Source: Pseudomonas sp. C2B4 (GTDB lineage Bacteria; Pseudomonadota; Gammaproteobacteria; Pseudomonadales; Pseudomonadaceae). Taken from it: a DNA stretch of 64,000 nt. The position numbers were made by a program, and so were the translations under genes. A model generated the notes under the pieces. That model worked only from the letters and a program-made list of their open reading frames with translations. It was not told the origin of the DNA and did not search any database. Shown here piece by piece: positions 18,324 to 36,236 of this stretch; position 1 is the stretch's first letter, and each line of letters starts with the position of its first letter. The DNA lies in assembly GCF_013359695.1 (NCBI RefSeq), contig NZ_JABFMU010000008.1, positions 72,860 through 136,859 of the forward strand, in the 5' to 3' direction.

Positions 18324-18654
18324 AAAGAGCGATCAGAGAGGTTGCATCAACATCCACCTCGGGTGCTGTCTCTGCAGATCGTCCCTGCAAATCCAGCCAA
18401 GACTTTTGATTAGTGCATAATATCGCGATGTTAGGTGGTACGTTAGCTTTCGTTCAGCATAGTCATGGAAAAAATACAAACAACGTCTAGCATTAACTGT
18501 GGCGTAATAGTCACTCCACGCTTTGTGAGCAAAAGTTTATAAGTTCAGTAGTTTCTAGCTTTGTTTGTGTGGATTAAGCGTGGTGTGGGAGGCAAAAAGT
18601 CTGCCAGAAGCCAGGTTTTTAACGAGTTTGTCGGGCGAGGTGTTCGGAGGTGAT
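18324..18654. other. Non-coding junction between lysis genes and cargo
   Basis: About 330 bases that become clearly richer in A and T than the phage genes. No gene, tRNA or strong terminator is seen. It is likely the boundary where cargo was added. GGAGG at 18646-18650 is the ribosome site of the next gene. Confidence 0.5.
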
Positions 18655-18954
18655 ATGAAGTTTAAGTATAACAATGTTTTATATTTTATGATTTTTTATG
18701 GGATTATTCTTTTGGCCGGGTTTAACTATACGCAAGAGTATCAAATGAGGGAGGTATATATTTTTATAGCTTATATGGCGTCTTGTATGTTTGTAATGAT
18801 GGTTGTTATTGTAAGGTCGTTAAAAAGGGGCGTAAATCAGCTGGTGGTTTTTTTCGTGGCGGAGCGTTGGAAAGTATTGGTGCGCCAATTGGGAGCTTCC
18901 ATCATGTGTTTTTATCTGGTGAAAATGTACTTGAGATGTTTCAAGTGGTTTTGA
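18655..18954 (+). CDS. Small membrane protein, possible 5' part of a frameshifted gene
   Basis: A 99-residue frame with a good GGAGG ribosome site. Residues 1-57 hold two probable transmembrane helices (VLYFMIFYGIILLAGF; VYIFIAYMASCMFVMMVVIV). After RSLKRG the sequence looks less structured and the frame ends at 18954. The overlapping frame -1 from this point encodes a long soluble domain that has no good start of its own. The A5G4 run TTAAAAAGGGG near 18821 is a likely place for a -1 shift or a one-base indel. Base use is AT-rich compared with the phage genes, so the gene was probably acquired. No family is recognised. Confidence 0.55.
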   Translation: MKFKYNNVLYFMIFYGIILLAGFNYTQEYQMREVYIFIAYMASCMFVMMVVIVRSLKRGVNQLVVFFVAERWKVLVRQLGASIMCFYLVKMYLRCFKWF

Positions 18955-19505
18955 ACGATTCTTTGTCAGAAAAGCTTGGCTGTTCTAGGCTCAGGGATAT
19001 TGTATTTCAAGATATTGATGATGAATTAAAGCTACCTGAATGTAGAGGTTTTTTGATTTCAGCAGCACCAGAGTCAGCTCGGCGGACGAAATTTTCTTTA
19101 GTGTGTAGTTTGACCAGAAATGGCGATATACAAGCAGTGCGGTGGTGGGTTTTGATTCGGGGTCCTATAGATCCGAACAAAGTTTTTTGGCGCTGCGCCT
19201 TCTCGCCATTTACCATTTCTGTGCGCTTTTTTCCATACTTAAGGCGTCTATGGAACCCATCTAATGGATTGACTTCAATAGATAACAGTTTTTTTAATGA
19301 GATTGATATACTCAATCGTACACGAGAAATTAATTTTTTGGCCTTTGAAGCGCTCGTGGAGGTCCTTGAATCGTTTGGAATCGATACATCCGACCTAAAG
19401 CAACAAAAAGGAAATGTGCTCAATATCAATGTGAGTGGCGGAAAAACATCCTTCGGGTCTCTAGTTCAGGGTTCGAAAAATACTATTTCGGGGACGGCGA
19501 ATTAA
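18783..19505 (+). CDS. Unknown soluble domain with C-terminal amyloid-motif-like tail
   Basis: An open frame of 240 codons whose only early start is TTG at 18783; an internal ATG at 18936 lacks a clear ribosome site. From about GGFFRGGALESIG it reads as a compact alpha/beta domain with no family I recognise. The last 26 residues (INVSGGKTSFGSLVQGSKN and on) closely resemble the first residues of the next protein. The best reading is that this is the cytosolic half of a two-helix membrane protein beginning at 18655, joined by a frameshift or split by a mutation. The start given is the frame limit, not a chosen start. Confidence 0.5.
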   Translation: MYVCNDGCYCKVVKKGRKSAGGFFRGGALESIGAPIGSFHHVFLSGENVLEMFQVVLNDSLSEKLGCSRLRDIVFQDIDDELKLPECRGFLISAAPESARRTKFSLVCSLTRNGDIQAVRWWVLIRGPIDPNKVFWRCAFSPFTISVRFFPYLRRLWNPSNGLTSIDNSFFNEIDILNRTREINFLAFEALVEVLESFGIDTSDLKQQKGNVLNINVSGGKTSFGSLVQGSKNTISGTAN

Positions 19506-19526
19506 TCAAAGTTGAGGTGAGATGTC

Positions 19527-19898
19527 ATGAGTAAATCAATCACGATCAATGTGTCATCTGGCACATCTGCTATTGGTACGATAAGTCAAGGGGACTCCGT
19601 ACAAACTTCTGGGAATGCTTCGATATCCAAGGAGTCTCTTGTTGAAAGTGAATACTCTCGCGTATGCCAGGAGCTTCTGGTAATTGCAAATAATCAAAAG
19701 TGTAACGCCGATGATTTGGCGATGGTTCAAGCGTGTCTTCAGCAGTTAATGAAAGAAGCCCTTGTGAAACCGGAAGATACTCATAAATGGGGTGAAAATC
19801 TCAAAGTTATTCGAGAGAATTTTCCGTGGGCTTATCCAGTTATAAAAGATTTTTTAACAGTTGCATGGCCGGCGTTGCTCGCGGCGATTGTAACATAG
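19527..19898 (+). CDS. Unknown protein with matching N-terminal motif
   Basis: A 123-residue protein starting 21 bases after the previous gene. Its first 30 residues (INVSSGTSAIGTISQGDSV core) share the pattern I-N-V-S-x-G-x4-G-x3-Q-G-x5-S-G with the tail of the upstream product. The rest is helical, with two Cys and a hydrophobic end (DFLTVAWPALLAAIVT) that could insert in a membrane. GAGGTGAG precedes the ATG. No domain is recognised. The two genes look like a functional pair carried as phage cargo, AT-rich relative to their surroundings. Confidence 0.7.
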   Translation: MSKSITINVSSGTSAIGTISQGDSVQTSGNASISKESLVESEYSRVCQELLVIANNQKCNADDLAMVQACLQQLMKEALVKPEDTHKWGENLKVIRENFPWAYPVIKDFLTVAWPALLAAIVT

Positions 19899-20101
19899 CA
19901 TTGGGGCTCGAAAGGGGGCCATGAAAGGGGCCGTTTTTCCAATATTTGGTTTTTAGAGGGTAGATAAAATCGTCCTCATTTCGGGCTTGTTGAGCAAAGT
20001 AATCGTCTGAGTTAATTGTTTGGTTGATAATTATCTTTGATAAATTGGTGTGGCGGTACGTCCGGCAATTTGTTGCTTTCTACTGCATGGCTGGTGAAAG
20101 G

Positions 20102-21838
20102 TTATTGAACGTTTTGTAGAAGCTCAGAGTCAATAATTTCATTAAGCTTAGATTTCATCAGGGCGGTCGATTGTGGTAAAAATGGAAGTCCGCCAATTTC
20201 TACTTGAGGAATGCTTTTATAAAACTTGTGCGATTGATAGGCCGCTTCATCTGGTAGTGGAAACAGCACGACAGCGCCTTGTACGATGCCTGTTATGTAG
20301 TCGTTGGGGCGCACCGGATGCGGGATGGCAATGGCATCCCGATATCGGTGCATGGTGTTAATGTCTTCTACAGTAGGGCCTGGACCGCCGTACTGGTTGA
20401 CGTATTCTCTGTCGAATTGAATGCGGTATTTTGCGTCAAATATATAAAAGCGTTTATCGCTCGCGATTTGAATTACATTGTCGGGTTTTTGCGCGATCGT
20501 CGGCAGTCTGCCAAACATTCGATTGTAGATAACATGAATTTTTTGATTTGTCGGGCGATGTAAGAATCGCATTGCAGCGGTGACGCCCTTGGCCAGCGTG
20601 ATTGTAGTTCTGAAACGATTTACTTTGACGACAGTTTGTTCCTCTAAATCAAATCGCTCACACAGCAGTTCGACAATTTTCAAAAAGCACCAGTACTCGT
20701 AAAGCAGTGCCGTGTCTTTTACTCCGATTGGAACTATATTGCCGGTAAATGAAAGCCCGCTATTTAATAGTCTGGCTATTTTGTCAATGCGCGAATACAC
20801 CGGGTGTTTGTGGAAGACCATTGAGCTGGGTTGTAACAGCGTCGCCTCGCCGACGGCCGCAAGGAATGGTGCCTTCAATGCGGCCTCCAAACGGCGCTCC
20901 ATCGTTTTTAGTTCGACGCGAATAGAATCAAAGAAGCGCATCTCCGAATCTTTTTCGGCATCCTCGTCCCCAGTTTGACGAACGCGAGACAGGGCGCGCA
21001 CATTTCGATAAGTCGCTTTCAACAGCCCTTTATAGTAGCGATTTTCCGGCGTATCGAAGGTGGTGGCCGTCACCTCTTCATCAATCTTCCGCGGAAGTGC
21101 GACATTCAGACGTGGAATTTCGGCCCCCCCGTTCTCCCGGCGCAATGCCCGTGAGATCGCCTGACGGGAGAGCTTGCGCGCTTGTTCCGTTTTTTTCTTG
21201 ACTGATTTGCGGGTCAGGCCGCTATGCGGCTTTCTAGCCACCGCATTAGTCAACTTGATGAACTCTTCAAAGTGACCCTTAAGCAAGGCAAACCACTCCA
21301 CAAGCGTAGGTCGGTGGCTTCGATCTGGGGCCGCGAGGCTGTAGCTCTTGGCGTTGGCCGTCATTGCTAAATTGCGAAGAGTCTTGGAGACGTCCTCACG
21401 CATCAAGAGGTAGTCGGTTCGGTAGTCAATCTTCCGAGAAAACACTTCTAGGCGCAGGGTGACAGCACCGTCTGGCGCCTCTATGCGGATGTCGGCAAAA
21501 CCGACGTTGTTTCGGAAATTGATGACGTGATGTTCAGCGTTCGGTCGAACTCGACGAGCCTCTGCGCCTGGAGGTAGCGCAACACTTACATCCGATGACT
21601 TTTCAAGATGGATGTCGTAGGCGATTTGCTCGAAGAACAGCGGCTCAATTAATTGACCTGAGGCTGTGGACACCAGTTGCTGGGACGCGCGCTCCAGCGT
21701 AAGCAAACGACAGAGCGCACCAGTTACTGCAACGGAAAATTGCGGCATCACCGCGATGAAGGGCGGAAGGTCTGGAAGCTTGCCAACTATTTCCAGTTTC
21801 CAGCCCAAGCCTTCTGCTTCTAGAAGTAGCGGCATCAA
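20102..21838 (-). CDS. McrC-like / DUF2357 PD-(D/E)xK restriction nuclease
   Basis: A 578-residue protein, last gene of a four-gene leftward operon. The C-terminal part contains YIFDAKYR (residues 465-472), the core of a PD-(D/E)xK nuclease as in McrC and DUF2357 proteins. The central region has HKHPVYSRIDKIARLLNSGL and a long Lys/Arg-rich helix. It overlaps the upstream McrB-like ATPase gene by four bases, so the two should work as a complex, with the ATPase moving on DNA and this subunit cutting. The pairing with a 5mC methylase and Vsr resembles BsuMI/LlaJI-type multi-gene restriction. Family recognition is by motif and context. Confidence 0.78.
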   Translation of the reverse strand: MMPLLLEAEGLGWKLEIVGKLPDLPPFIAVMPQFSVAVTGALCRLLTLERASQQLVSTASGQLIEPLFFEQIAYDIHLEKSSDVSVALPPGAEARRVRPNAEHHVINFRNNVGFADIRIEAPDGAVTLRLEVFSRKIDYRTDYLLMREDVSKTLRNLAMTANAKSYSLAAPDRSHRPTLVEWFALLKGHFEEFIKLTNAVARKPHSGLTRKSVKKKTEQARKLSRQAISRALRRENGGAEIPRLNVALPRKIDEEVTATTFDTPENRYYKGLLKATYRNVRALSRVRQTGDEDAEKDSEMRFFDSIRVELKTMERRLEAALKAPFLAAVGEATLLQPSSMVFHKHPVYSRIDKIARLLNSGLSFTGNIVPIGVKDTALLYEYWCFLKIVELLCERFDLEEQTVVKVNRFRTTITLAKGVTAAMRFLHRPTNQKIHVIYNRMFGRLPTIAQKPDNVIQIASDKRFYIFDAKYRIQFDREYVNQYGGPGPTVEDINTMHRYRDAIAIPHPVRPNDYITGIVQGAVVLFPLPDEAAYQSHKFYKSIPQVEIGGLPFLPQSTALMKSKLNEIIDSELLQNVQ

Positions 21839-23277
21839 GTTCCCCAGTAATGAGTCGCACCGTCAACATCAAGGAGGCTGGCCATGCGCTCGACTTTTTC
21901 TTGGCTCCGAGTGAATGGCCCAAGGAAAGTGCAAGGCTCGCCGTCGCCATCCTCCGTCCGCTCGAGCTTGAGCCATTCTGTAAGCGTCGACAGCGCATTT
22001 GCCAGCTGGTCGCCACTGCCAGAAATTTTTGGCAGGACTTTCTGAAGCAGGCAGAAGTCCAGCGCGGCATTGGCGCTCACAATGTCCTCCAAGCCGAGCT
22101 GCTTCCAAAAATGCAAGTACAGCAGCACGGCGTCGCGAGTGCGATAGCCGAATCTAATCCCGGTCGGAGAGAGAATGTTCTGAATTTCCTGGAGTAGACC
22201 GGCCACCTCGTCAAACAGTGCTTGACTGTCCTGATAGGCTTCCTGAATGGAGATGGGGTTTTTGGCGTCAACGATCAGATCCGCAAGCTTCGAAAAATCC
22301 TCTTCGGCAGTCGCAGTGAAGTTTGCGAAGGAAGTTAAGTCAGGATCGTCGAATTCAATGGTGAACGCGCGGTCAAGCACCTTGGGGCTGAATGAGTGGG
22401 TCGTCTCATCCATGTTGGCGGTCCCAATAACGCGTAAGTTATGGGGTAAGCCGAGATTTTCCAGGTGGCTGTATTTGTTTAACGGCTCTGTCGGGATCTT
22501 TGGCAGTTCTATCGGTAATGGGTCTGTGACGATTGACCCGCCGTCCCGACGTCGAGTCTCCGCAATGCTGAGGAAGTCGCTGAAGTAATGCTCAACCGGC
22601 GCAAGGTTCATCTCGTCAAGCAGCGTAATGGTAAGGGTTGAGGGATTTTCTTTGGCTTTTACCAAGCTGGCGATGAGGGCTCCCTCAATGAACTCGGAGG
22701 GAGAAAGCGTTGGCACATAACCGAATAAATCGCTGTTGTCGGACCATTGCGGCTGAACCGGGACTAGTTTGAACTCGGATCCCGCGTGTTTGGCGAATTT
22801 TCGTGGCAGCAGGCTTTTGCCTGTGCCGGAGATGCCGGACAGGATCACCAATGGACTCACCATCATCGCCAGGTAAAAGTTGGCGAAATCCGCAACCGAA
22901 AATGTAAAGCCTTCCGACTCGATCTTCGATTGGAGACGAATCAGCAAATCGCTGGCCCGAGTCGAATTGGCCAGCGGAAGCGGCGTGGCTGGGGTCGTAC
23001 GGCTTACAAGGCTGGGACCGAAGCGATACTCCGCTGTCGAGCTCCCGTTTCGCGCTTCAGACAGGGCTTTAGCCATAGCGCCGGTTTTTTCCAGCAGCCC
23101 CTCCTTCATCAGTCGCTTCGGCTGATGTGGGCGAGCAGTGCTTGGGATTTGAATGCCTGGTGGCGTATTTTGCCAAATCACATCAGCGGGAAACTTGAAG
23201 TCGGGACCTTGTTCGGCGAACATTTTTTTTACGGCTTCGCGCGCCAGCTCTGTAACTTGGTCATTGGTAAGAGGCAT
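21835..23277 (-). CDS. McrB-like AAA+ ATPase/GTPase of restriction complex
   Basis: A 480-residue protein. Residues 1-110 form an N-terminal domain that may bind DNA. The AAA+ module has Walker A GISGTGKS (148-155), Walker B TITLLDEMNLAPVEHYFSDF and the sensor segment VIGTANMDETTHSFSPK with VLDRAF. This is the McrB/MoxR-like class that partners with McrC-type nucleases. The gene starts 17 bases after the methyltransferase stop and overlaps the nuclease gene, so expression is coupled. Whether it uses ATP or GTP cannot be read from the sequence. Confidence 0.83.
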   Translation of the reverse strand: MPLTNDQVTELAREAVKKMFAEQGPDFKFPADVIWQNTPPGIQIPSTARPHQPKRLMKEGLLEKTGAMAKALSEARNGSSTAEYRFGPSLVSRTTPATPLPLANSTRASDLLIRLQSKIESEGFTFSVADFANFYLAMMVSPLVILSGISGTGKSLLPRKFAKHAGSEFKLVPVQPQWSDNSDLFGYVPTLSPSEFIEGALIASLVKAKENPSTLTITLLDEMNLAPVEHYFSDFLSIAETRRRDGGSIVTDPLPIELPKIPTEPLNKYSHLENLGLPHNLRVIGTANMDETTHSFSPKVLDRAFTIEFDDPDLTSFANFTATAEEDFSKLADLIVDAKNPISIQEAYQDSQALFDEVAGLLQEIQNILSPTGIRFGYRTRDAVLLYLHFWKQLGLEDIVSANAALDFCLLQKVLPKISGSGDQLANALSTLTEWLKLERTEDGDGEPCTFLGPFTRSQEKVERMASLLDVDGATHYWGT

Positions 23278-23294
23278 TGAGGACCCTTTTGTTT

Positions 23295-24674
23295 TTAGGC
23301 GTTGACGACTTTTTCTTGTGCTTGCTGTCGAAGTCCCGCTCGGTGCGCGTCGAGTTGAGTTGCCAGGTGTTTTGCGATGGCTTGCGCTAGCCCGGGCGGG
23401 ACAGCCTCGCCGATCATGTCCATCCCAACTCCCATGCGAGCGCTGTCTAGGTGCTCGTTGTCGGAAGTGATGAAGCGGAAGTCGTCATCGAAGGATTGAA
23501 GTCTGGCAGCTTCGCGCATGGTTATGCCGCGAAGCGCTTCCGGATGAGAAAAGCGGCCGGAGCCAAGGAAGTTTGCGTTGGCCGTAATGGTCAGAGCCGG
23601 AGCATCCCACGCTAAGCGAGTGTAGGCGCTCCAGTAGTAATCCTTGTAGAAGACGGGGTTAAGCTGGCCGGACTTTTCTAGCAGGTCACGAGCAACGTCG
23701 CTGGAAATCCCATGTTCACTCGCGAGTTTCGCAATGGCGACTTCATAGTCGGCGCGCATGCGTTTGCTCTCGGCGTCCCAAGTCTGGCCAGGGCGCATTT
23801 CCCTGATGATATCCAGTATCGCCTGCTTGTAGGAGCGGGTGACGTGGTTGTAGGGAAAGGAAGACGAAGTACGCATGGCCGCGGCATATGCGCTCGGAGG
23901 GCCAGTGTACAGATCCAGCCCCATGCCACCGATCTCATCTGTTTTGTCAGAGGGAGAAGGCAGATCGCGGATAGCATCGCCCACAGTTACCCATGGCAAT
24001 CGGCCGTGTGCCAGTAAATGCGGTTTGGAAGGGTCGGCGTGTGTCGCGGGGGGGAGAGATGCGGCGCCAATTGAGCTGGCGATAAAAATGGCGCGCTCGC
24101 GCAACTGGGGAACGCCATAGTCGGCAGCATTCAGTACGGCGACTTCCACCTTGTAGCCAAGGTCTTTTTCCAGCATTTCAATGACAATTTCGGAGAGCTT
24201 ACCAAGTCTGCCTTCAAAGCCGTGGTTCAGCATTTGCGGAACGTTTTCAATGACCAGAAACTTTGGGCGCAGCGCTTCGGCAACTTCCAGGTAACGCAAG
24301 ACGAGGTCATTGCGCGGGTCATGGGCTAGTTTGCTGTACCCGCTGAATTTAACGATTTTTCCTTTTTCTCGATGCTCGACTCGCCGCATTTGGGAGAAGC
24401 CTTGGCAAGGCGGGCCGCCAATCATGCAGTCCAAATCACCTGGCTGAACTCCGCGCTCCTTCATGGCGTCATGGATCTGCGAAATCTCCAGCGTGCGAAT
24501 GTCTTCGCGAATGGTGACGGGAGGAACATCGTCATTTCGGTGATTGTAGGCGAAGGTTCTGAGCGCCTCGGCCTTCACGTCGTTGCCCAGCACAACATTG
24601 AATCGACCCGAGCGGGTAAAGCCGCGAGAGGTGCCCCCGCAACCACAAAAGAACTCGGCAAGCGTGTATTTCAT
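23295..24674 (-). CDS. DNA (cytosine-5) methyltransferase
   Basis: A 459-residue C5-cytosine methyltransferase. Motif I is EFFCGCGGTSRGF (residues 7-19), motif IV GGPPCQGFSQ has catalytic Cys90, and motif VI is LVIENVPQM. The C-terminal motifs IX-X are present (WDAPALTITANANFLGSGRF, TMREAARLQSFDDDF). The target-recognition region between them is of normal size. It should protect the host at the site cut by the restriction genes downstream. A Vsr gene lies 37 bases upstream, the usual partner that repairs T-G mismatches made by deamination of 5mC. Confidence 0.93.
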   Translation of the reverse strand: MKYTLAEFFCGCGGTSRGFTRSGRFNVVLGNDVKAEALRTFAYNHRNDDVPPVTIREDIRTLEISQIHDAMKERGVQPGDLDCMIGGPPCQGFSQMRRVEHREKGKIVKFSGYSKLAHDPRNDLVLRYLEVAEALRPKFLVIENVPQMLNHGFEGRLGKLSEIVIEMLEKDLGYKVEVAVLNAADYGVPQLRERAIFIASSIGAASLPPATHADPSKPHLLAHGRLPWVTVGDAIRDLPSPSDKTDEIGGMGLDLYTGPPSAYAAAMRTSSSFPYNHVTRSYKQAILDIIREMRPGQTWDAESKRMRADYEVAIAKLASEHGISSDVARDLLEKSGQLNPVFYKDYYWSAYTRLAWDAPALTITANANFLGSGRFSHPEALRGITMREAARLQSFDDDFRFITSDNEHLDSARMGVGMDMIGEAVPPGLAQAIAKHLATQLDAHRAGLRQQAQEKVVNA

Positions 24675-24711
24675 TTAATGCAGTCTCATCCCAAGAAGGC
24701 TTCGGGCCTTT

Positions 24712-25254
24712 TCAATCATTCAGAAACGCCCTTAGCCTAGCGGCAAGAGCGTCCATATTTTTCAGCTCGCACTCCCACACGACGAGGGCTTGCCAACCCA
24801 TCGTATGAAGCTTCTCCAAGTTCTCCTGGTCGCGCTCCAGGGTCCTAGCAAACTTCGGCAACCAGTATTCGGTTCTGCTCGATGGCGTCGTCGCTTTGCT
24901 GCAGCCGGCGTGTCGATGCCAAAAGCAGCCATGGACGAAAATCGCTTTTTTCTGCGAACGGAACACCAAGTCAGGTTTGCCGGGAAGGTCCTTAGCATGA
25001 AGCCGATAACGAAACTTCATGGAAAACAACAGTTTCCGTACGAATAGCTCTGGTTTGGTGTCCTTGGAGCGGACGAGCGACATTTGTCTGCTCCGCTCTT
25101 CTATGGAAATGCGGTCCATGCGGCATTCTATCAGGCGATCAAATTCGGTGCTGGTGCAAAGGGCGGACGGCTGCATGGTTCTGGGGTTGCGTTCAGCCGC
25201 CATTGAAAAATCAAGCGCAGCTTGCAATTGCGAGCTATGCATGACCTGTTTCAC
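24712..25254 (-). CDS. vsr: Very short patch repair endonuclease (Vsr)
   Basis: The frame gives 180 residues; a start at 25119 (MDRISIEERSRQM) would give 135, closer to the family length of about 140-155, so the first 45 residues may not be translated. The Vsr signature is clear: RSRQMSLVRSKDTKPEL, FRYRLHAKDLPGKPDLVF, then FVHGCFWHRHAGC with the zinc-site residues. Vsr nicks 5' of a T-G mismatch at methylated cytosine sites. It is the first gene of the vsr-methylase-McrB-McrC operon. Confidence 0.92.
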   Translation of the reverse strand: MKQVMHSSQLQAALDFSMAAERNPRTMQPSALCTSTEFDRLIECRMDRISIEERSRQMSLVRSKDTKPELFVRKLLFSMKFRYRLHAKDLPGKPDLVFRSQKKAIFVHGCFWHRHAGCSKATTPSSRTEYWLPKFARTLERDQENLEKLHTMGWQALVVWECELKNMDALAARLRAFLND

Positions 25255-25480
25255 AAGCTCTGGTCCGCTTGATGCCTGTCTTGATGGGCAGCAACCGACT
25301 TAGGCTGTGTGAAAGCGTTCTGGAGCAGGTTGGACAGTCAAAGCCGCAACGGAAGTCGCGCTCCTCCGCAGTGTGCAGGTCTGGCTGACCAATTAATTAA
25401 TGGCTGTCAGATTTTACAGGCCAGCGCAGGCTGAAAAACGGTGTATGCGTTTTCACGCAGCCTGGACCCATTGCGGAAAG

Positions 25481-26197
25481 TTAGATGAAGAGCTGCTTCT
25501 TGGCTTCCCCAATCGAAAGCCATTGTTTTTTCATTGCGATTGCACGATGAAGCAAGCGATGACAGCTTGCACACAGTAATGCCATGTCCTTTACCTTGGT
25601 TTTTGTTTCGCCGATCATGCTGAGCGGAAGAACGTGGTGGCACTCAAACATAGAATTCCTGAGGTTTGGCTCAACATTGTGTCCAGCTTCACCACAAAGG
25701 TCGCATTCCAGGCTACCTAACCTGAGACGCTTAGCAATTACTTCCTTTCGTACCTTGGAGCTTCGTTCTCGCTCAACATGAACCCTAGTCGCTGACTTGC
25801 CTTCGGCGAATTCTTCTTCAACGTCATCCGACACTAGATCAACGACAGCTTCCGTGCTGTAGCGAATAATTTTGGCCAATTCATGAGTGCGTATTGGATC
25901 GGTGCCAAGCTCTTTCCATATTTCACGGTCAATCTTTGCAGTATTCGAAAGACCTCTACCGGTTGAAACGCTTCGGAGATTTTGCAGTTTGAAAGCCACG
26001 CCAGCTGGATTTCTAAAAGACTCTTCGCGGGCCGCATCGCTGTGATGGGGGAATGCTCTTAGTGTTCTAGAAAGCTCACAAATTCTCTCGTCAGTAGACC
26101 CTGGAATTTTTCCGTCGAAGGCATGGTAAAGATCAAGTGCAAGTATCACCTCCTCACGCGTCCAATCTGGATTTCCTTGCCCTTTAGTAACTGCCAT
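25481..26197 (-). CDS. HNH endonuclease, McrA-like
   Basis: A 238-residue protein with a C-terminal HNH nuclease: a zinc knuckle ECDLCGEAGH, the catalytic FECHHVLPLS and the LLCASCHRLLHR end. The N-terminal 100 residues (DWTREEVILALDLYHAF, FRNPAGVAFKLQNLRSV) are a domain found before HNH modules in putative modification-dependent nucleases. Together this suggests cleavage of modified DNA. It reads in the same direction as the restriction operon but is separated from vsr by about 225 non-coding bases, so it may have its own promoter. Confidence 0.85.
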   Translation of the reverse strand: MAVTKGQGNPDWTREEVILALDLYHAFDGKIPGSTDERICELSRTLRAFPHHSDAAREESFRNPAGVAFKLQNLRSVSTGRGLSNTAKIDREIWKELGTDPIRTHELAKIIRYSTEAVVDLVSDDVEEEFAEGKSATRVHVERERSSKVRKEVIAKRLRLGSLECDLCGEAGHNVEPNLRNSMFECHHVLPLSMIGETKTKVKDMALLCASCHRLLHRAIAMKKQWLSIGEAKKQLFI

Positions 26198-26510
26198 TCA
26201 TTGCGCCCCCAGCATTCGATTATTTGCTATTGAAGCTTATTTTTCAGTGATTTCGTAGCAAGGTTCTGAAAGTTAACCGTTGGCCGTTCTCTGTTGGCCA
26301 TGATCACAAAGCCTGCTGCTCAAGCCCGACGCAGGCGAATGGTCAGTGCTCGTGACAGGCCTGTGTGAACGCTTGCTTAAAAATTGCTACATCGACAATG
26401 AGATAAAGCAGCGCGGGTCAAGCCGGCCGGGCCTGCGGTGGATAACTATTTCCAATCCATCATTGGACAGTAGTAGAAATTACAAAATCAGCATCAATTT
26501 ACCGTTACTC
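26198..26510. other. Non-coding stretch between nuclease genes
   Basis: About 310 bases with no convincing gene. The sequence is of mixed base composition. The promoter of the leftward HNH gene is expected here but no clear -35/-10 pair stands out. Confidence 0.4.
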
Positions 26511-27512
26511 CTATACCTCAGACGGAAGCATGACCTGACGATACTCAAGTGGAATATTGAATTTTTCCGTGAGGTATTTGAGATATCGCTCATCTTCAGC
26601 GCTCAGCGCAGTCCGTCCCACGGCTACTAGCCTAACGGCTTTTTCCGATGGATCATCCCAGTAGTACGCATACTCGAGCAGCTGACCAATCGCCAATCTC
26701 AAGACTCTACGGGTAGAAAAGTCTGACTTTATCTCGAAGAGTATTTTCTCTAGATCAGTTGTTACGGTGACATCTACAAAATTCTCTTCGAAGACGATCT
26801 TCGCGCCCGGAAATTCAATCTTTAGCTCCTCATGCAGGGCTGCTTGTATCATCCCATGCTCTGGCGAACACTCCTGTCCTGATCCACCACTCCTGAAGTA
26901 GCTGTCTTGAATTGGCGGAAGGTCGTGCCCTTTTCTGCCAGGGCGGGCGTTGATCGTTTTGGGCAACCATTCCTTGTCGGTAAGGTCAATGAGCTGGTAG
27001 CGGTTGTAGTGCTGCACGGGGTCCGCTGCCGTCGCGTAGGTGGCTGGTGGGTACCATTCAACATCTTCCGGACGAAAGCGTACGTTCAGTACGTAAGGGG
27101 CCCATTCGCCGTTCCCCAGGCCACTTCTATCCCCGTCAACGTTGTCTATTTCCTCGAGCATGCGGTCATACCAACCAAGCCGCTTGTAGTGATCCAGAGC
27201 AGCAGTGCCCTGAGCAGCATCCAAGAACTCAACATGACGGATACGGGCCACGAAGCGCCGACCTTCAGGCGCAATGGTGTAAAGCACGACATCCCCAACC
27301 CGTTCCCCGCGTGCAATTCGTGATTCCCAGCCTCTGTTCACGCCCTGAAGAAAACCATACTGCCATCCGCCTATTTGCCATTCGAATCGAAACAACCACT
27401 CTTCATGGCCATAGCTGTGTTGGGAGTAAAAGGTATCGGGGGACTCGGTTGCACTCCCTGTTGGGTACTGCCAATTGGAGTTGTTATGGCAGATGCGAGT
27501 GATGTAGGTCAT
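26511..27512 (-). CDS. Putative modification-dependent PD-(D/E)xK nuclease
   Basis: A 333-residue protein. The N-terminal half (SYGHEEWLFRFEWQIGG, then RVGDVVLYTIAPEGRRFVARI) looks like a PUA/EVE-type domain of the kind that reads modified bases. The C-terminal half has ENFVDVTVTTDLEKILFEIKS, which fits a PD-(D/E)xK core with Asp, then Glu-x-Lys. It is the cargo gene closest to attR, facing inward. The sequence supports a nuclease fold; the idea that it restricts modified phage DNA is inference from architecture and neighbours. Confidence 0.65.
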   Translation of the reverse strand: MTYITRICHNNSNWQYPTGSATESPDTFYSQHSYGHEEWLFRFEWQIGGWQYGFLQGVNRGWESRIARGERVGDVVLYTIAPEGRRFVARIRHVEFLDAAQGTAALDHYKRLGWYDRMLEEIDNVDGDRSGLGNGEWAPYVLNVRFRPEDVEWYPPATYATAADPVQHYNRYQLIDLTDKEWLPKTINARPGRKGHDLPPIQDSYFRSGGSGQECSPEHGMIQAALHEELKIEFPGAKIVFEENFVDVTVTTDLEKILFEIKSDFSTRRVLRLAIGQLLEYAYYWDDPSEKAVRLVAVGRTALSAEDERYLKYLTEKFNIPLEYRQVMLPSEV

Positions 27513-27760
27513 TGCAGTCCTTGTCGTAGGGGTTGCGGCTAAAGGCCATCACGTAGAATGGCAAAAACTAATCATCATTCCAAGCGCTGTCTAAAGCACC
27601 TGAATTTCTTGGCGGGAGGATCGAGAGAGCTCTTGGTGGTGCCTAAAAAGCGTTCCGCATCCAAAAAAAAGGCTCTTGAAAATCGCGGGTTTTAGGCCTT
27701 TCAAAATCAGAGGCTTGCGGAACGTGACCTGTGCTAACGTGCTGATCTACTTAATTTTGT

Positions 27761-27811
27761 TAGCGGATTGCAAATCCGCCTACGCCGGTTCGATTCCGAC
27801 CTCGGCCTCCA
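27761..27811 (+). other. attR of prophage 1: 3' fragment of tRNA-Cys(GCA)
   Basis: The last 51 nt of a tRNA-Cys are present: anticodon arm GCGGATTGCAAATCCGC, T arm with GGTTCGATTCC, 3' acceptor strand CTCGGCC and TCCA. The 5' half (a GGCCGAG acceptor strand and D arm) is absent upstream, so this is not a functional tRNA gene. Such fragments mark the distal end of elements integrated at tRNA 3' ends. The intact tRNA-Cys and the integrase are predicted on the left side of the prophage. Confidence 0.85.
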
Positions 27812-27822
27812 CTAATAAACAA

Positions 27823-27852
27823 CCCCGTAGATTAACGTCTACGGGGTTTTTT
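27823..27852 (+). terminator. Terminator downstream of tRNA-Cys fragment
   Basis: CCCCGTAGA (27823-27831) pairs with TCTACGGGG (27838-27846) around a 6-nt loop, followed by TTTTTT. It is the expected native terminator of the tRNA-Cys transcript and now sits just outside attR. Confidence 0.9.
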
Positions 27853-27993
27853 ATTGCTTGCGGAAAAGTGATCGGTCGCCCTGGAAACAGGAGCAAGGCT
27901 TTCCAGGGACAAACTGATTTTGTCCATACCCGTTCACGTCTCGCTCTGATTGCCGATAACCCGGCATCTGATCAAAAGCAAGGAGTGCCCTGA

Positions 27994-32023: not shown

Positions 32024-32110
32024 GCCCGAATGGCGAAACTGGTAGACGCATGGGACTTAAAATCCCCCGCTCGTAAGGGCGTGCCGGTTCGATTCCGGCT
32101 TCGGGCACCA
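32024..32110 (+). tRNA. tRNA-Leu (anticodon TAA)
   Basis: An 87-nt type II tRNA. The acceptor stem GCCCGAA pairs with TTCGGGC, and CCA is encoded at the 3' end. The D arm contains GGCGAAACTGGTAGACGC, the anticodon loop CTTAAAA carries TAA, a long variable arm (CGCTCGTAAGGGCG) is present and the T arm has GGTTCGATTCC. An integrase gene lies just downstream reading toward it, so its 3' end is the likely attachment site of element 2. Confidence 0.97.
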
Positions 32111-32203
32111 TGAATATCAAGGGCTTGCATGACATACCTCATGCAAGCCCTTTGTTCTTTTTTCCGCAATCAAAAAATCTTTTCCGCAATTCTGGACCGT
32201 CAG

Positions 32204-33235
32204 TCACTTCGTAGGGGTTACCTTCAAGCCCTTTCGCATTCGGATGTACTGCTCTGTCATCCCAACGGTTGTATGTCCCAACTGGTCCCGAGCTTCGCGG
32301 ATGCTTCCTGTTGACTCCTCTTTGTCCGTTGCCGCTTTTGCTCGTAAGTCCCGCATCTGAAATTCTGCTTTCGGGATACCGGCTGCCTCTCTGGCGTCAT
32401 CAAATCTTTTCCTGAGCATGCTCGTCGTCATCGGCTGTCCAGAATCGATTACCACCAGGCGTGTTGATCTGATTTTGTGTCCAGCCTTTCGAGCCATGAT
32501 TCGGTCTATAACGATTTTGAGCTCTCCAATAATCTCGATCCTTCGTTTGGCACCAGTCTTTCCTTGTTGTACGGAAAGCTTCCCGTCTTTTATGTCTCGC
32601 TCATCCATCTTCAATGTGTCGGCCACCCTTTGACCTGTCAGATAGAACAGGTCCAGGGCATCTCTCAATGGTTGATCGGCATGCTGATATGCTTTGGCAA
32701 GTACGTCGTCTTCGACGTATACGTCGCGACCAGTTTCCTTATTGCCCTTTACCCCGGCGCAAGGATTTGCCAGAGATGTGTAACCATTCTCACGAGCAAA
32801 GTTCCAAATTGAGCTGAGCAACGCTTTTTCTCGATTCGCACGAACTGGTGCTGTTTTTCCCCGATGACGAAGGTACTGACTGACATGCTTTGGTTCGATT
32901 GCTTCAAGCGGGGCGGGCGGATCGTTGAAGAACAACAGAAGGTTTTTCAGTTCGCGCGCATTGTCCTTTTGGGTGGCATGGGCTTTGGTAGGGACTACCT
33001 CCTTCATATAGAGCTCGGCAACGTACGCAAAGGTTAATACTTCTTGCGTGAGAGCTTGAGACACACGGCTTTTTTCTAATTTCGCGTACTCCAAGATGGC
33101 AAGACCATAGTCAGTGCCTAAGGGTATTTCCTTGCGTGGTTTCCCTCCGGTGTCGTACAAGTAGTAGGTTGTTTTTCCGCGCCTTCTCTCGCGCAAGCGG
33201 GGAATGCTCCCCGGCTTCGTTGGTCTTCGTCCCAT
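32204..33235 (-). CDS. Tyrosine-recombinase integrase
   Basis: A 343-residue phage integrase. The N-terminal arm-binding part is basic (GRRPTKPGSIPRLRERRRGKT). The core-binding domain follows, and the catalytic domain has Arg in YLTGQRVADTLKM, the RDLRAKAATD region in place of the usual HxxR box, and LGHTTVGMTEQYIR with the tyrosine nucleophile. Its 3' end is 94 bases from the tRNA-Leu, the normal layout for an element integrated in that tRNA. The first His of the HxxR box appears replaced (MRDLR), which occurs in some active family members. Confidence 0.93.
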   Translation of the reverse strand: MGRRPTKPGSIPRLRERRRGKTTYYLYDTGGKPRKEIPLGTDYGLAILEYAKLEKSRVSQALTQEVLTFAYVAELYMKEVVPTKAHATQKDNARELKNLLLFFNDPPAPLEAIEPKHVSQYLRHRGKTAPVRANREKALLSSIWNFARENGYTSLANPCAGVKGNKETGRDVYVEDDVLAKAYQHADQPLRDALDLFYLTGQRVADTLKMDERDIKDGKLSVQQGKTGAKRRIEIIGELKIVIDRIMARKAGHKIRSTRLVVIDSGQPMTTSMLRKRFDDAREAAGIPKAEFQMRDLRAKAATDKEESTGSIREARDQLGHTTVGMTEQYIRMRKGLKVTPTK

Positions 33236-35486: not shown

Positions 35487-36236
35487 TTAAAATAGTGCGG
35501 AGCTGTGAAGAAAGCGTGATGACTTCAGTATTCCGCCCACGAGATGGATTTCTTCCACCTCTTGTTCTGCTATATGAAGAGTTTCATGGTCGGTATTGAC
35601 GCTATCCAACCGGTACATTCCGTCGCGAAGATAAATAAACTCTTTGATCATGGCTTTGCCGGAAGACGTTCGAACTATGACCTCGTCACCGCTACTGAAG
35701 CGTTTGTTCGGCTCTATAAGCACAAACTCGCCATTCTTGATGCGGGGCATCAAACTATCGCCCATGACTCTTATGCCATAGGCATCTGGATCATCGCTAT
35801 GTATGTTTAGGTAGCCTTCACCTTGGCCAAGTGGTGGCTCTAACGTGTCAAAAAAGCCCTCATCCCCGAGCTGCGCGTTTGATAGTACAGGCACCTTTCC
35901 ATCCTTAGCCCAGCCAACAAGGCTGGTAACAGGTTGGTCTTTGTCTTTCGATCTTCCGTAATCCCTTACAAGACGGTCTTCAGACCGAATCCGACCTTCA
36001 ATGGCGTCTGAGTACGATTCGACGTCGGAACGATTTTTTCCTGCTACCAGATCTGGAAAAGACACTCCTAGTGCTGTCGCTATCTTTTGTAAGTCATGGA
36101 GGTTGGGCTGGCGAGCCCCTTTCTCGTAATTGCCTATCCGAGACTGGGATTCCCAACCGCAAGCGTAAGCAAGGGCTTGTTGGCTCATACCCTTGGCTTT
36201 GCGGTATTGCTTGATACGTGCGCCGAGTGTGTTCAT
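35487..36236 (-). CDS. CI-like repressor with S24 autoprotease domain
   Basis: A 249-residue lysogeny repressor. Residues 1-60 are an HTH_3/XRE domain (IKQYRKAKGMSQQALAYACG). The C-terminal S24/LexA-like domain has nucleophile Ser161 in VMGDSLMPRI and Lys198 in AMIKEF, 37 residues apart as in LexA, so RecA-stimulated self-cleavage is expected after DNA damage. The gene lies between two promoter regions, divergent from a Cro-like gene. It seems intact, so the element may still carry working immunity. Confidence 0.93.
   Translation of the reverse strand: MNTLGARIKQYRKAKGMSQQALAYACGWESQSRIGNYEKGARQPNLHDLQKIATALGVSFPDLVAGKNRSDVESYSDAIEGRIRSEDRLVRDYGRSKDKDQPVTSLVGWAKDGKVPVLSNAQLGDEGFFDTLEPPLGQGEGYLNIHSDDPDAYGIRVMGDSLMPRIKNGEFVLIEPNKRFSSGDEVIVRTSSGKAMIKEFIYLRDGMYRLDSVNTDHETLHIAEQEVEEIHLVGGILKSSRFLHSSALF

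What the first reader, a model, noticed from the sequence alone, without database searches (positions are those of the whole stretch)
18655..19898. Two-gene phage cargo sharing an amyloid-signalling-like motif
The C-terminus of the upstream product (INVSGGKTSFGSLVQGSKN) and the N-terminus of the downstream one (INVSSGTSAIGTISQGDSV) follow one pattern, I-N-V-S-x-G-x4-G-x3-Q-G-x5-S-G, with 10 of 23 positions identical. Matching short Gly/Asn/Gln-rich motifs on a sensor and on an effector are the hallmark of bacterial amyloid signalling pairs that trigger cell death. Here one partner appears membrane-anchored by two helices and the other ends in a hydrophobic segment. I recognise no known family. 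This is the best candidate here for an undescribed system, perhaps phage-encoded abortive defence or superinfection exclusion.
Basis: partly seen in the sequence, partly recalled or inferred. Interest (0 to 1): 0.72.

Follow-up and report, generated by a model that had tools for sequence, protein, structure and literature searches.

The report
Prophage gene pair sharing one motif
Two neighbouring genes carried by a bacterial prophage, one for a membrane protein and one for a small helical protein, end and begin with the same short sticky-looking motif, and a distant bacterium carries the same pair with the same two motifs, so they probably work together by docking or co-aggregating through it.

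Summary
The shared motif is real and above chance (BLASTP E=2e-4; 1 of 20,000 shuffles). One correction: the upstream product is not a single open frame. The two-helix start (ATG 18655) stops at 18954; the soluble part and motif lie in another frame (ORF ending 19505), so the gene is frame-broken as assembled. Of 321 genomes of the class, one besides the window's own has a relative (G953, another family; E=2e-40). There the upstream gene is one frame (286 aa: long hydrophobic start, same soluble domain, C-terminal motif) and overlaps by 4 bp a 114-aa gene whose N-terminus carries the motif. A profile made only from the two upstream proteins found the downstream motif in the whole G953 genome (E=5.3e-4). 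The downstream protein is a low-confidence N-terminal tail plus a predicted four-helix bundle. No NLR or other known domain was found. The layout matches NLR-linked bacterial amyloid-signalling pairs, minus the NLR. I think NLR-free motif-templated assembly at the membrane most likely (0.45); plain docking is the chief rival. Amyloid, toxicity and defence are untested.

The parts
18646..18654 (+). Shine-Dalgarno-like ggaggtgat directly before the ATG of the upstream gene
   Evidence: sequence
18655..18954 (+). Start of the upstream gene: two membrane-like segments (residues 8-26, 33-56); this frame stops at 18954, and its coding signal fades between about 18810 and 18870
18783..19505 (+). P0001: rest of the upstream gene in another frame (soluble domain plus C-terminal motif); aligned from its third residue to P0003 of G953 (31% over 236 aa)
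19419..19502 (+). C-terminal shared motif LNINVSGGKTSFGSLVQGSKNTISGTAN
19514..19521 (+). Shine-Dalgarno-like gaggtgag before the downstream gene
19527..19898 (+). P0002: downstream gene, 123 aa, N-terminal motif plus four-helix domain
19539..19622 (+). N-terminal shared motif ITINVSSGTSAIGTISQGDSVQTSGNAS
19629..19892 (+). Predicted four-helix domain (helices at residues 35-57, 61-80, 88-98, 103-122), last helix hydrophobic
18421..27764 (.). Variable cargo slot of the prophage: similarity to the 40 sister regions compared ends at 18420 or before; the closest sister (L099) matches again at 27765-27870

Best explanation
A rare two-gene module of Gammaproteobacteria in which a membrane protein (hydrophobic N-terminus long enough for two helices, a soluble domain of about 200 residues, and a C-terminal motif) and a small protein (N-terminal motif, then a four-helix domain) are made together and recognise each other by like-with-like assembly of the shared Gly/Asn/Ser/Gln motif, in the manner of amyloid-signalling pairs but without an NLR. 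Shown: both genes, both motifs, their order, and their recurrence as a pair in a second family. Predicted: the membrane helices and the four-helix domain. Inferred: that the motifs form a beta-arch or amyloid contact; that one partner is triggered and templates the other at the inner membrane; that the outcome is membrane damage, arrest or death, perhaps against phages. By the polarity described for known pairs (C-terminal motif on the effector, N-terminal on the receptor) I give a slight preference (about 55:45) to the membrane protein as effector and the small protein as trigger or adaptor. In this genome the membrane gene is frame-broken, so the module here is probably inactive unless the ribosome shifts frame or the assembly is wrong.
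For: Motif match within the window pair E=2e-4 and within the G953 pair 13 of 25 identical, E=2e-6, 0 of 20,000 shuffles. Upstream proteins are homologous (31% over 236 aa, E=7e-48), downstream proteins weakly so (24% over 106 aa, E=2e-6, partly through the motif). A profile built from the two upstream proteins alone, searched against five genomes, gave in G953 the gene itself and then the adjacent gene's motif (E=5.3e-4). With the four-motif profile, searched in G000, G953 and G737, the only strong places are these four (E 3e-12 to 1e-15; they are the profile's own members), and no NLR-like partner with the motif turned up (the three next hits, E 0.003 to 0.3, are a 5'-nucleotidase-like protein, a Rieske-like protein and an 80-codon frame, names recalled). 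Four-bp overlap of the genes in G953. In the model of P0002 residues 1-32 are below pLDDT 50 while the helices reach about 85. Overlapping or adjacent genes with matching motifs at a C- and an N-terminus is the published layout of bacterial amyloid pairs (PMC7889193, passages).
Against: Only two instances were found, one of them in a genome 79% complete in about 250 contigs. No amyloid predictor or BASS model was available. The four motifs lack the RHIM core (hydrophobic-Q-hydrophobic-G): all four have Q-G instead. No NLR or known effector domain. The cognate motifs are not clearly closer to each other than to others: identities of 29 are W1-W2 11 and G1-G2 13 (cognate), W1-G2 12 and W2-G1 9 (non-cognate), W1-G1 16 and W2-G2 10 (homologous), so no pair-specific co-evolution is demonstrated. 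A 12-residue piece very like the motif (ITINVSGGKVSF) occurs inside an unrelated 5'-nucleotidase-like protein of G953 (E=0.003), so such letters can also sit elsewhere. The upstream gene is broken in this genome. BLASTP of P0003 with P0002 did not recover the motif.
Confidence: 0.45

Rival explanations
1. The shared motif is an ordinary docking element: the small protein binds the membrane protein (or both bind a third partner) by beta-strand pairing, as in a toxin-antitoxin or subunit pair, with no amyloid and no templating.
For: Same genetic evidence as above; the 4-bp overlap fits fixed-ratio co-translation; invariant G, Q and S in the four motifs suit tight turns as well as amyloid.
Against: Docking partners more often carry complementary than like sequences (general knowledge); the motif is at chain ends and low-confidence in the one usable model, as for signalling amyloids.
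Confidence: 0.3
2. The motif is a repeated tag or a segment copied from one gene to the other (localisation, chaperone or assembly signal) and the pair has no signalling role.
For: Upstream motifs resemble each other more than their neighbours' motifs (16 of 29 against 11 and 13); a similar short piece occurs in an unrelated protein.
Against: Kept at the same termini of both genes in two families whose downstream proteins otherwise retain little identity.
Confidence: 0.15
3. The frame break is a programmed -1 ribosomal frameshift that makes a short two-helix product and a long motif-bearing one.
For: Both frames are open across the overlap 18783-18951 and the codon signal switches within it.
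Against: Downstream RNA is not unusually structured (z -1.27 and -1.19); the G953 homologue is a single frame, so a shift is not conserved. An inactivating mutation or an assembly error is simpler.
Confidence: 0.05
4. The similarity is chance and the two genes are unrelated neighbours.
For: In the window alone the score barely leads the best of 49,506 pairings of mostly spurious ORFs (55 against 54).
Against: Independent recurrence in G953.
Confidence: 0.03

Closest known systems
NLR-associated bacterial amyloid signalling pairs (BASS 1-10; Dyrka et al. 2020, not held here; reviewed in PMC7889193, passages read)
   Same: Two adjacent or overlapping genes; matching short motif at the C-terminus of one product and the N-terminus of the other; a helical domain and a membrane segment in the module
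   Different: No NLR; the helical domain follows an N-terminal motif instead of preceding a C-terminal one; Gammaproteobacteria instead of mainly filamentous actinobacteria and cyanobacteria; membership in a BASS motif family not tested
RHIM / BASS3 / fungal PP motif
   Same: Short Gly-Asn-Gln motif; hydrophobic residue before Q, and G-x-x-N-x-hydrophobic after it, in three of four motifs
   Different: The residue between Q and G of the core is missing in all four
HET-S/NWD2-type fungal signalosomes with HeLo four-helix executioners
   Same: A four-helix domain coupled to an amyloid-like motif
   Different: No significant sequence or fold match found; order of motif and bundle is reversed; no NLR
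Prophage superinfection-exclusion and abortive-infection modules
   Same: Placed in the variable cargo slot after the lysis genes, beside restriction genes
   Different: No match in PADLOC-DB; function untested; in the second instance I saw no phage gene in the 12 kb read by eye

Membership tests
BASS-type amyloid signalling pair | Adjacent or overlapping genes with a matching motif at the C-terminus of one and the N-terminus of the other | tested here: met
BASS-type amyloid signalling pair | Receptor with NLR architecture (nucleotide-binding domain plus repeats) | tested here: not met
   downstream products of 123 and 114 aa and both upstream products hit no such family; no other convincing motif carrier in G000 or G953 (G953 is 79% complete)
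BASS-type amyloid signalling pair | Effector with Bell, TIR or CHAT domain | tested here: inconclusive
   no Pfam or NCBIfam match above a cut-off; whether those libraries hold a Bell model was not checked; P0001 gave no usable fold
BASS-type amyloid signalling pair | Motif belongs to one of the BASS 1-10 families | not tested
   no BASS alignments or models were held
BASS-type amyloid signalling pair | Motif forms cross-beta fibrils | not testable with these tools
   needs peptides
RHIM-like motif | Core hydrophobic-Q-hydrophobic-G (pattern recalled; the published BASS3 peptide with GVQVGDGN was read) | tested here: not met
   0 of 4 motifs; all four read Q-G
HeLo/Bell/4HB membrane-attacking bundle | Fold match to a known member | tested here: inconclusive
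   no PDB or viral match with E<=0.001 for the P0002 model; the second look gave bundles of many kinds, best Z 9.6, designed proteins first
Type II toxin-antitoxin or known anti-phage system | Match to a described family | tested here: inconclusive
   0 families in PADLOC-DB at E<=1 for P0001-P0004; a library holds only described systems

The most novel reading that the evidence does not exclude
An amyloid-signalling pair that needs no NLR, found in Gammaproteobacteria and carried by a prophage: a membrane-anchored partner and a four-helix partner that template each other through a motif outside RHIM, giving a minimal two-protein death or exclusion switch.
Probability: 0.33. Interest if true: 0.85.

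Novelty: new variant of a known kind. Interest (0 to 1): 0.6.

Why it matters
A 2021 review of the field asks in so many words whether signalling amyloids exist in fungi and bacteria in pathways not dependent on NLRs, and notes that existing searches were biased towards NLR architectures (PMC7889193, passages read). This pair, with an unbroken second copy in G953, makes that question directly testable with two short peptides and two small genes. If it fails the test, it is still a recurrent two-gene module without a match in the family libraries searched here.

Tried and rejected
No relatives by: tblastn of P0001 and P0002 in phages and plasmids, of the two motif peptides in phages, of P0003 in both, of P0004 in plasmids; P0004 gave one E=0.4 hit in the phage collection, taken as chance and not opened. 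Viral contigs with P0001, P0002, A2, P0003, P0004, A3: no confirmed relative. Genome contigs with P0001 and P0002: none (a single protein finds close relatives only). E. coli genomes with the G953 pair's DNA: none.

Searches of whole genomes (sets overlap): P0002 in 298 of the family, only its own genome. P0001 in 398 of the genus: 120 with E<=0.1, own included, none but its own at E<=0.001; of the many hits at residues 97-146 I read two, L044 and L047, a hydrophobic transporter-like protein sharing a short VFWRC stretch, and two others, L041 and L042, unrelated (family name EamA recalled). Motif profile A1 in 298 of the genus: 7 other genomes at E 0.019-0.094, judged chance on reading: short frames and one long flagellar-hook-like protein (one search read five minus-strand loci on the wrong strand, corrected). 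P0002 in 321 genomes of the class: one E=0.006 hit besides its own, a sugar-phosphate-isomerase-like protein (name recalled), and it missed the G953 partner. P0001 in a class draw of 321: the G953 hit. A2 in 55 of the phylum: only its own. P0003 in the 5 genomes held of G953's order: only its own.

Sister prophages: of 249 genus genomes, 197 matched the tail-lysis DNA; I took 40 regions from 39 of them, the best matches that reach the lysis end. Motif profile hits there were all E about 1 or worse; P0001 had three hits at E 0.003-0.005 (L102, L103, L109), taken to be the same transporter but not opened. The DNA pattern scan of viral contigs gave 37 stretches; reading the one matching frame of each, I took all as chance, but did not search their neighbouring genes for a second motif. 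The PDB sequence hit of P0001 to a GTP-binding protein (E=0.017) covers 58 residues including part of the motif and was judged chance; profile A3 gave four PDB hits at E 0.1-0.9, judged chance. Rfam and tRNA scans of the G953 locus found nothing.

Papers: 'amyloid signaling' with prophage and abortive infection, 0 papers; 'amyloid signaling motif' with bacteria, prophage and effector, 0; five wider searches were seen as lists of 6 to 20 rows, none of which by title or start of abstract describes this pair. PMC8086366, PMC12261475, PMC7889193 and PMC12881547 were opened, as passages only.

Full report
What is there. The window lies in a 144.5-kb contig of a 6.84-Mb genome. From the left edge to about 18.3 kb it is a tailed prophage: portal, tail fibre, sheath, tape measure, endolysin and Rz spanin, with an integrase, an S24-peptidase (repressor-like) gene, a VapE-like replication protein and a gpA terminase on the contig to the left. 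In a comparison with 40 sister prophage regions of the genus, similarity to the window ends at 18420 or before; only the closest one matches again, at 27765-27870. The finding therefore sits at the start of a variable cargo slot, followed on the other strand by a DUF2357/PD-(D/E)XK nuclease and an AAA ATPase (PADLOC candidate system PDC-M26: B model E=9.6e-9, A model E=3.7e-51), a cytosine methylase, Vsr and an HNH protein.

The pair. The downstream gene (19527-19898) is a clean 123-codon frame with a Shine-Dalgarno-like site. The upstream gene starts at ATG 18655 behind ggaggtgat and begins with two membrane-like segments, but that frame stops at 18954. The rest, with the motif, lies in another frame ending at 19505. 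A rough codon score favours the first frame up to about 18810 and the second from about 18870.

Motif statistics. The two products align only over the motif: 11 of 28 identical, E=2e-4. One of 20,000 shuffles of the ends reached the score, and it is first of 49,506 ORF-end pairings, narrowly. In this window alone that would be suggestive rather than conclusive.

A second pair. Of 321 genomes of the class searched with P0001, one besides the window's own has a relative: G953, E=2e-40, 32% identity over residues 20-238. There the upstream gene is a single 286-codon frame with the same layout: a hydrophobic stretch at residues 13-57, long enough for two helices, first, and the motif last. A 114-codon gene overlaps it by 4 bp and opens with the motif. 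The upstream proteins are 31% identical over 236 residues without a gap. The downstream proteins are 24% identical over 106 residues, E=2e-6. The motifs of the G953 pair match at 13 of 25 positions, E=2e-6, and none of 20,000 shuffles of the ends reached their score. Searching five genomes with a profile of the two upstream proteins gave, in G953, the gene itself and then its neighbour's motif at E=5.3e-4. This last test contains no downstream sequence in the query and is the best evidence that the shared motif is a property of the pair. S, G, G, Q, G and S are invariant in the four motifs. Across pairs, P0001 and P0004 also align over the motif (E=1e-6), whereas P0003 and P0002 do not.

Structure. 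AlphaFold2 without an alignment gives P0002 a mean pLDDT of 69: residues 1-32 are below 50, and four helices (35-57, 61-80, 88-98, 103-122) reach about 85 in places. No library match passes E=0.001. The second look gives only bundles of many kinds, which for helical models is common. P0001 gave no usable model, mean pLDDT 34.5. The last helix of P0002 is hydrophobic (residues 104-123), but no segment of its G953 homologue passes the same threshold, so a pore made by the small protein is weakly supported.

How it may work. Bacterial amyloid-signalling pairs are described as adjacent or overlapping genes with like motifs at the N-terminus of an NLR and the C-terminus of an effector, usually a small helical bundle called Bell (PMC7889193, passages; dataset definitions in PMC12261475, passages). 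The present pair keeps the genetic layout and the termini but has no NLR. I therefore propose motif-templated assembly between a membrane-anchored protein and a small four-helix protein, with membrane damage or arrest as the likely result and phage or plasmid entry as a plausible trigger. Only the anatomy is shown. The amyloid step, the direction, the trigger and the outcome are inference. Ordinary beta-strand docking explains the same facts and is the main rival.

Limits. Two instances are few, and G953 is a draft of 79% completeness. Scans of the large collections start from short peptide patterns and would miss relatives at about 30% identity: the genome-contig scans found none, and the class search with P0002 missed the G953 partner. 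The module may thus be commoner than it looks. No BASS model or amyloid predictor was at hand. Cognate motifs are not demonstrably closer than others (11 and 13 of 29 against 12 and 9 for non-cognate pairs and 16 and 10 for homologues). A similar 12-residue string inside a 5'-nucleotidase-like protein (family name recalled) warns against reading function from these letters alone.

State of the copy here. As assembled, the upstream gene cannot make the motif-bearing membrane protein in one frame. The neighbouring RNA is not unusually folded and the G953 gene is one frame, so an inactivating change or an assembly error is likelier than programmed frameshifting. The downstream gene remains open.

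Noticed in passing
window 20102-25254 (-): Restriction-like cargo next to the pair: DUF2357/PD-(D/E)XK nuclease (PADLOC PDC-M26B, E=9.6e-9) with an AAA ATPase (PDC-M26A, E=3.7e-51), C5 cytosine methylase and Vsr; an HNH protein follows at 25481-26197.
   Followed up: partly
window 32024-33235: A second integrase gene (32204-33235, -) lies directly beside a tRNA-Leu (32024-32110), with an HTH/S24 repressor at 35487-36236: probably a second integrated element.
   Followed up: no
window 27765-27870: 106 bp, 92% identical to a stretch about 4 kb after the lysis genes of the sister prophage in L099: a candidate right end of the prophage.
   Followed up: no
L141:1472-1700 and L141:6065-6290: Imperfect direct repeats of about 229 bp (76%) bracket 4.6 kb in G953 that holds a calcineurin-like phosphoesterase, the gene pair and a glyoxalase-like gene (the last by eye); one further weak partial copy elsewhere in that genome. 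Possibly a mobile cassette.
   Followed up: partly
L151 (G953:C216): A 5'-nucleotidase-like protein (name recalled) carries ITINVSGGKVSF in its interior, nearly the first half of the motif (E=0.003).
   Followed up: partly
L099-L138: The slot after the lysis genes is highly variable among 40 sister prophage regions; neighbouring ORFs of about 141 and 425 codons recur there and may be a UmuDC-like pair (recalled, not tested).
   Followed up: no
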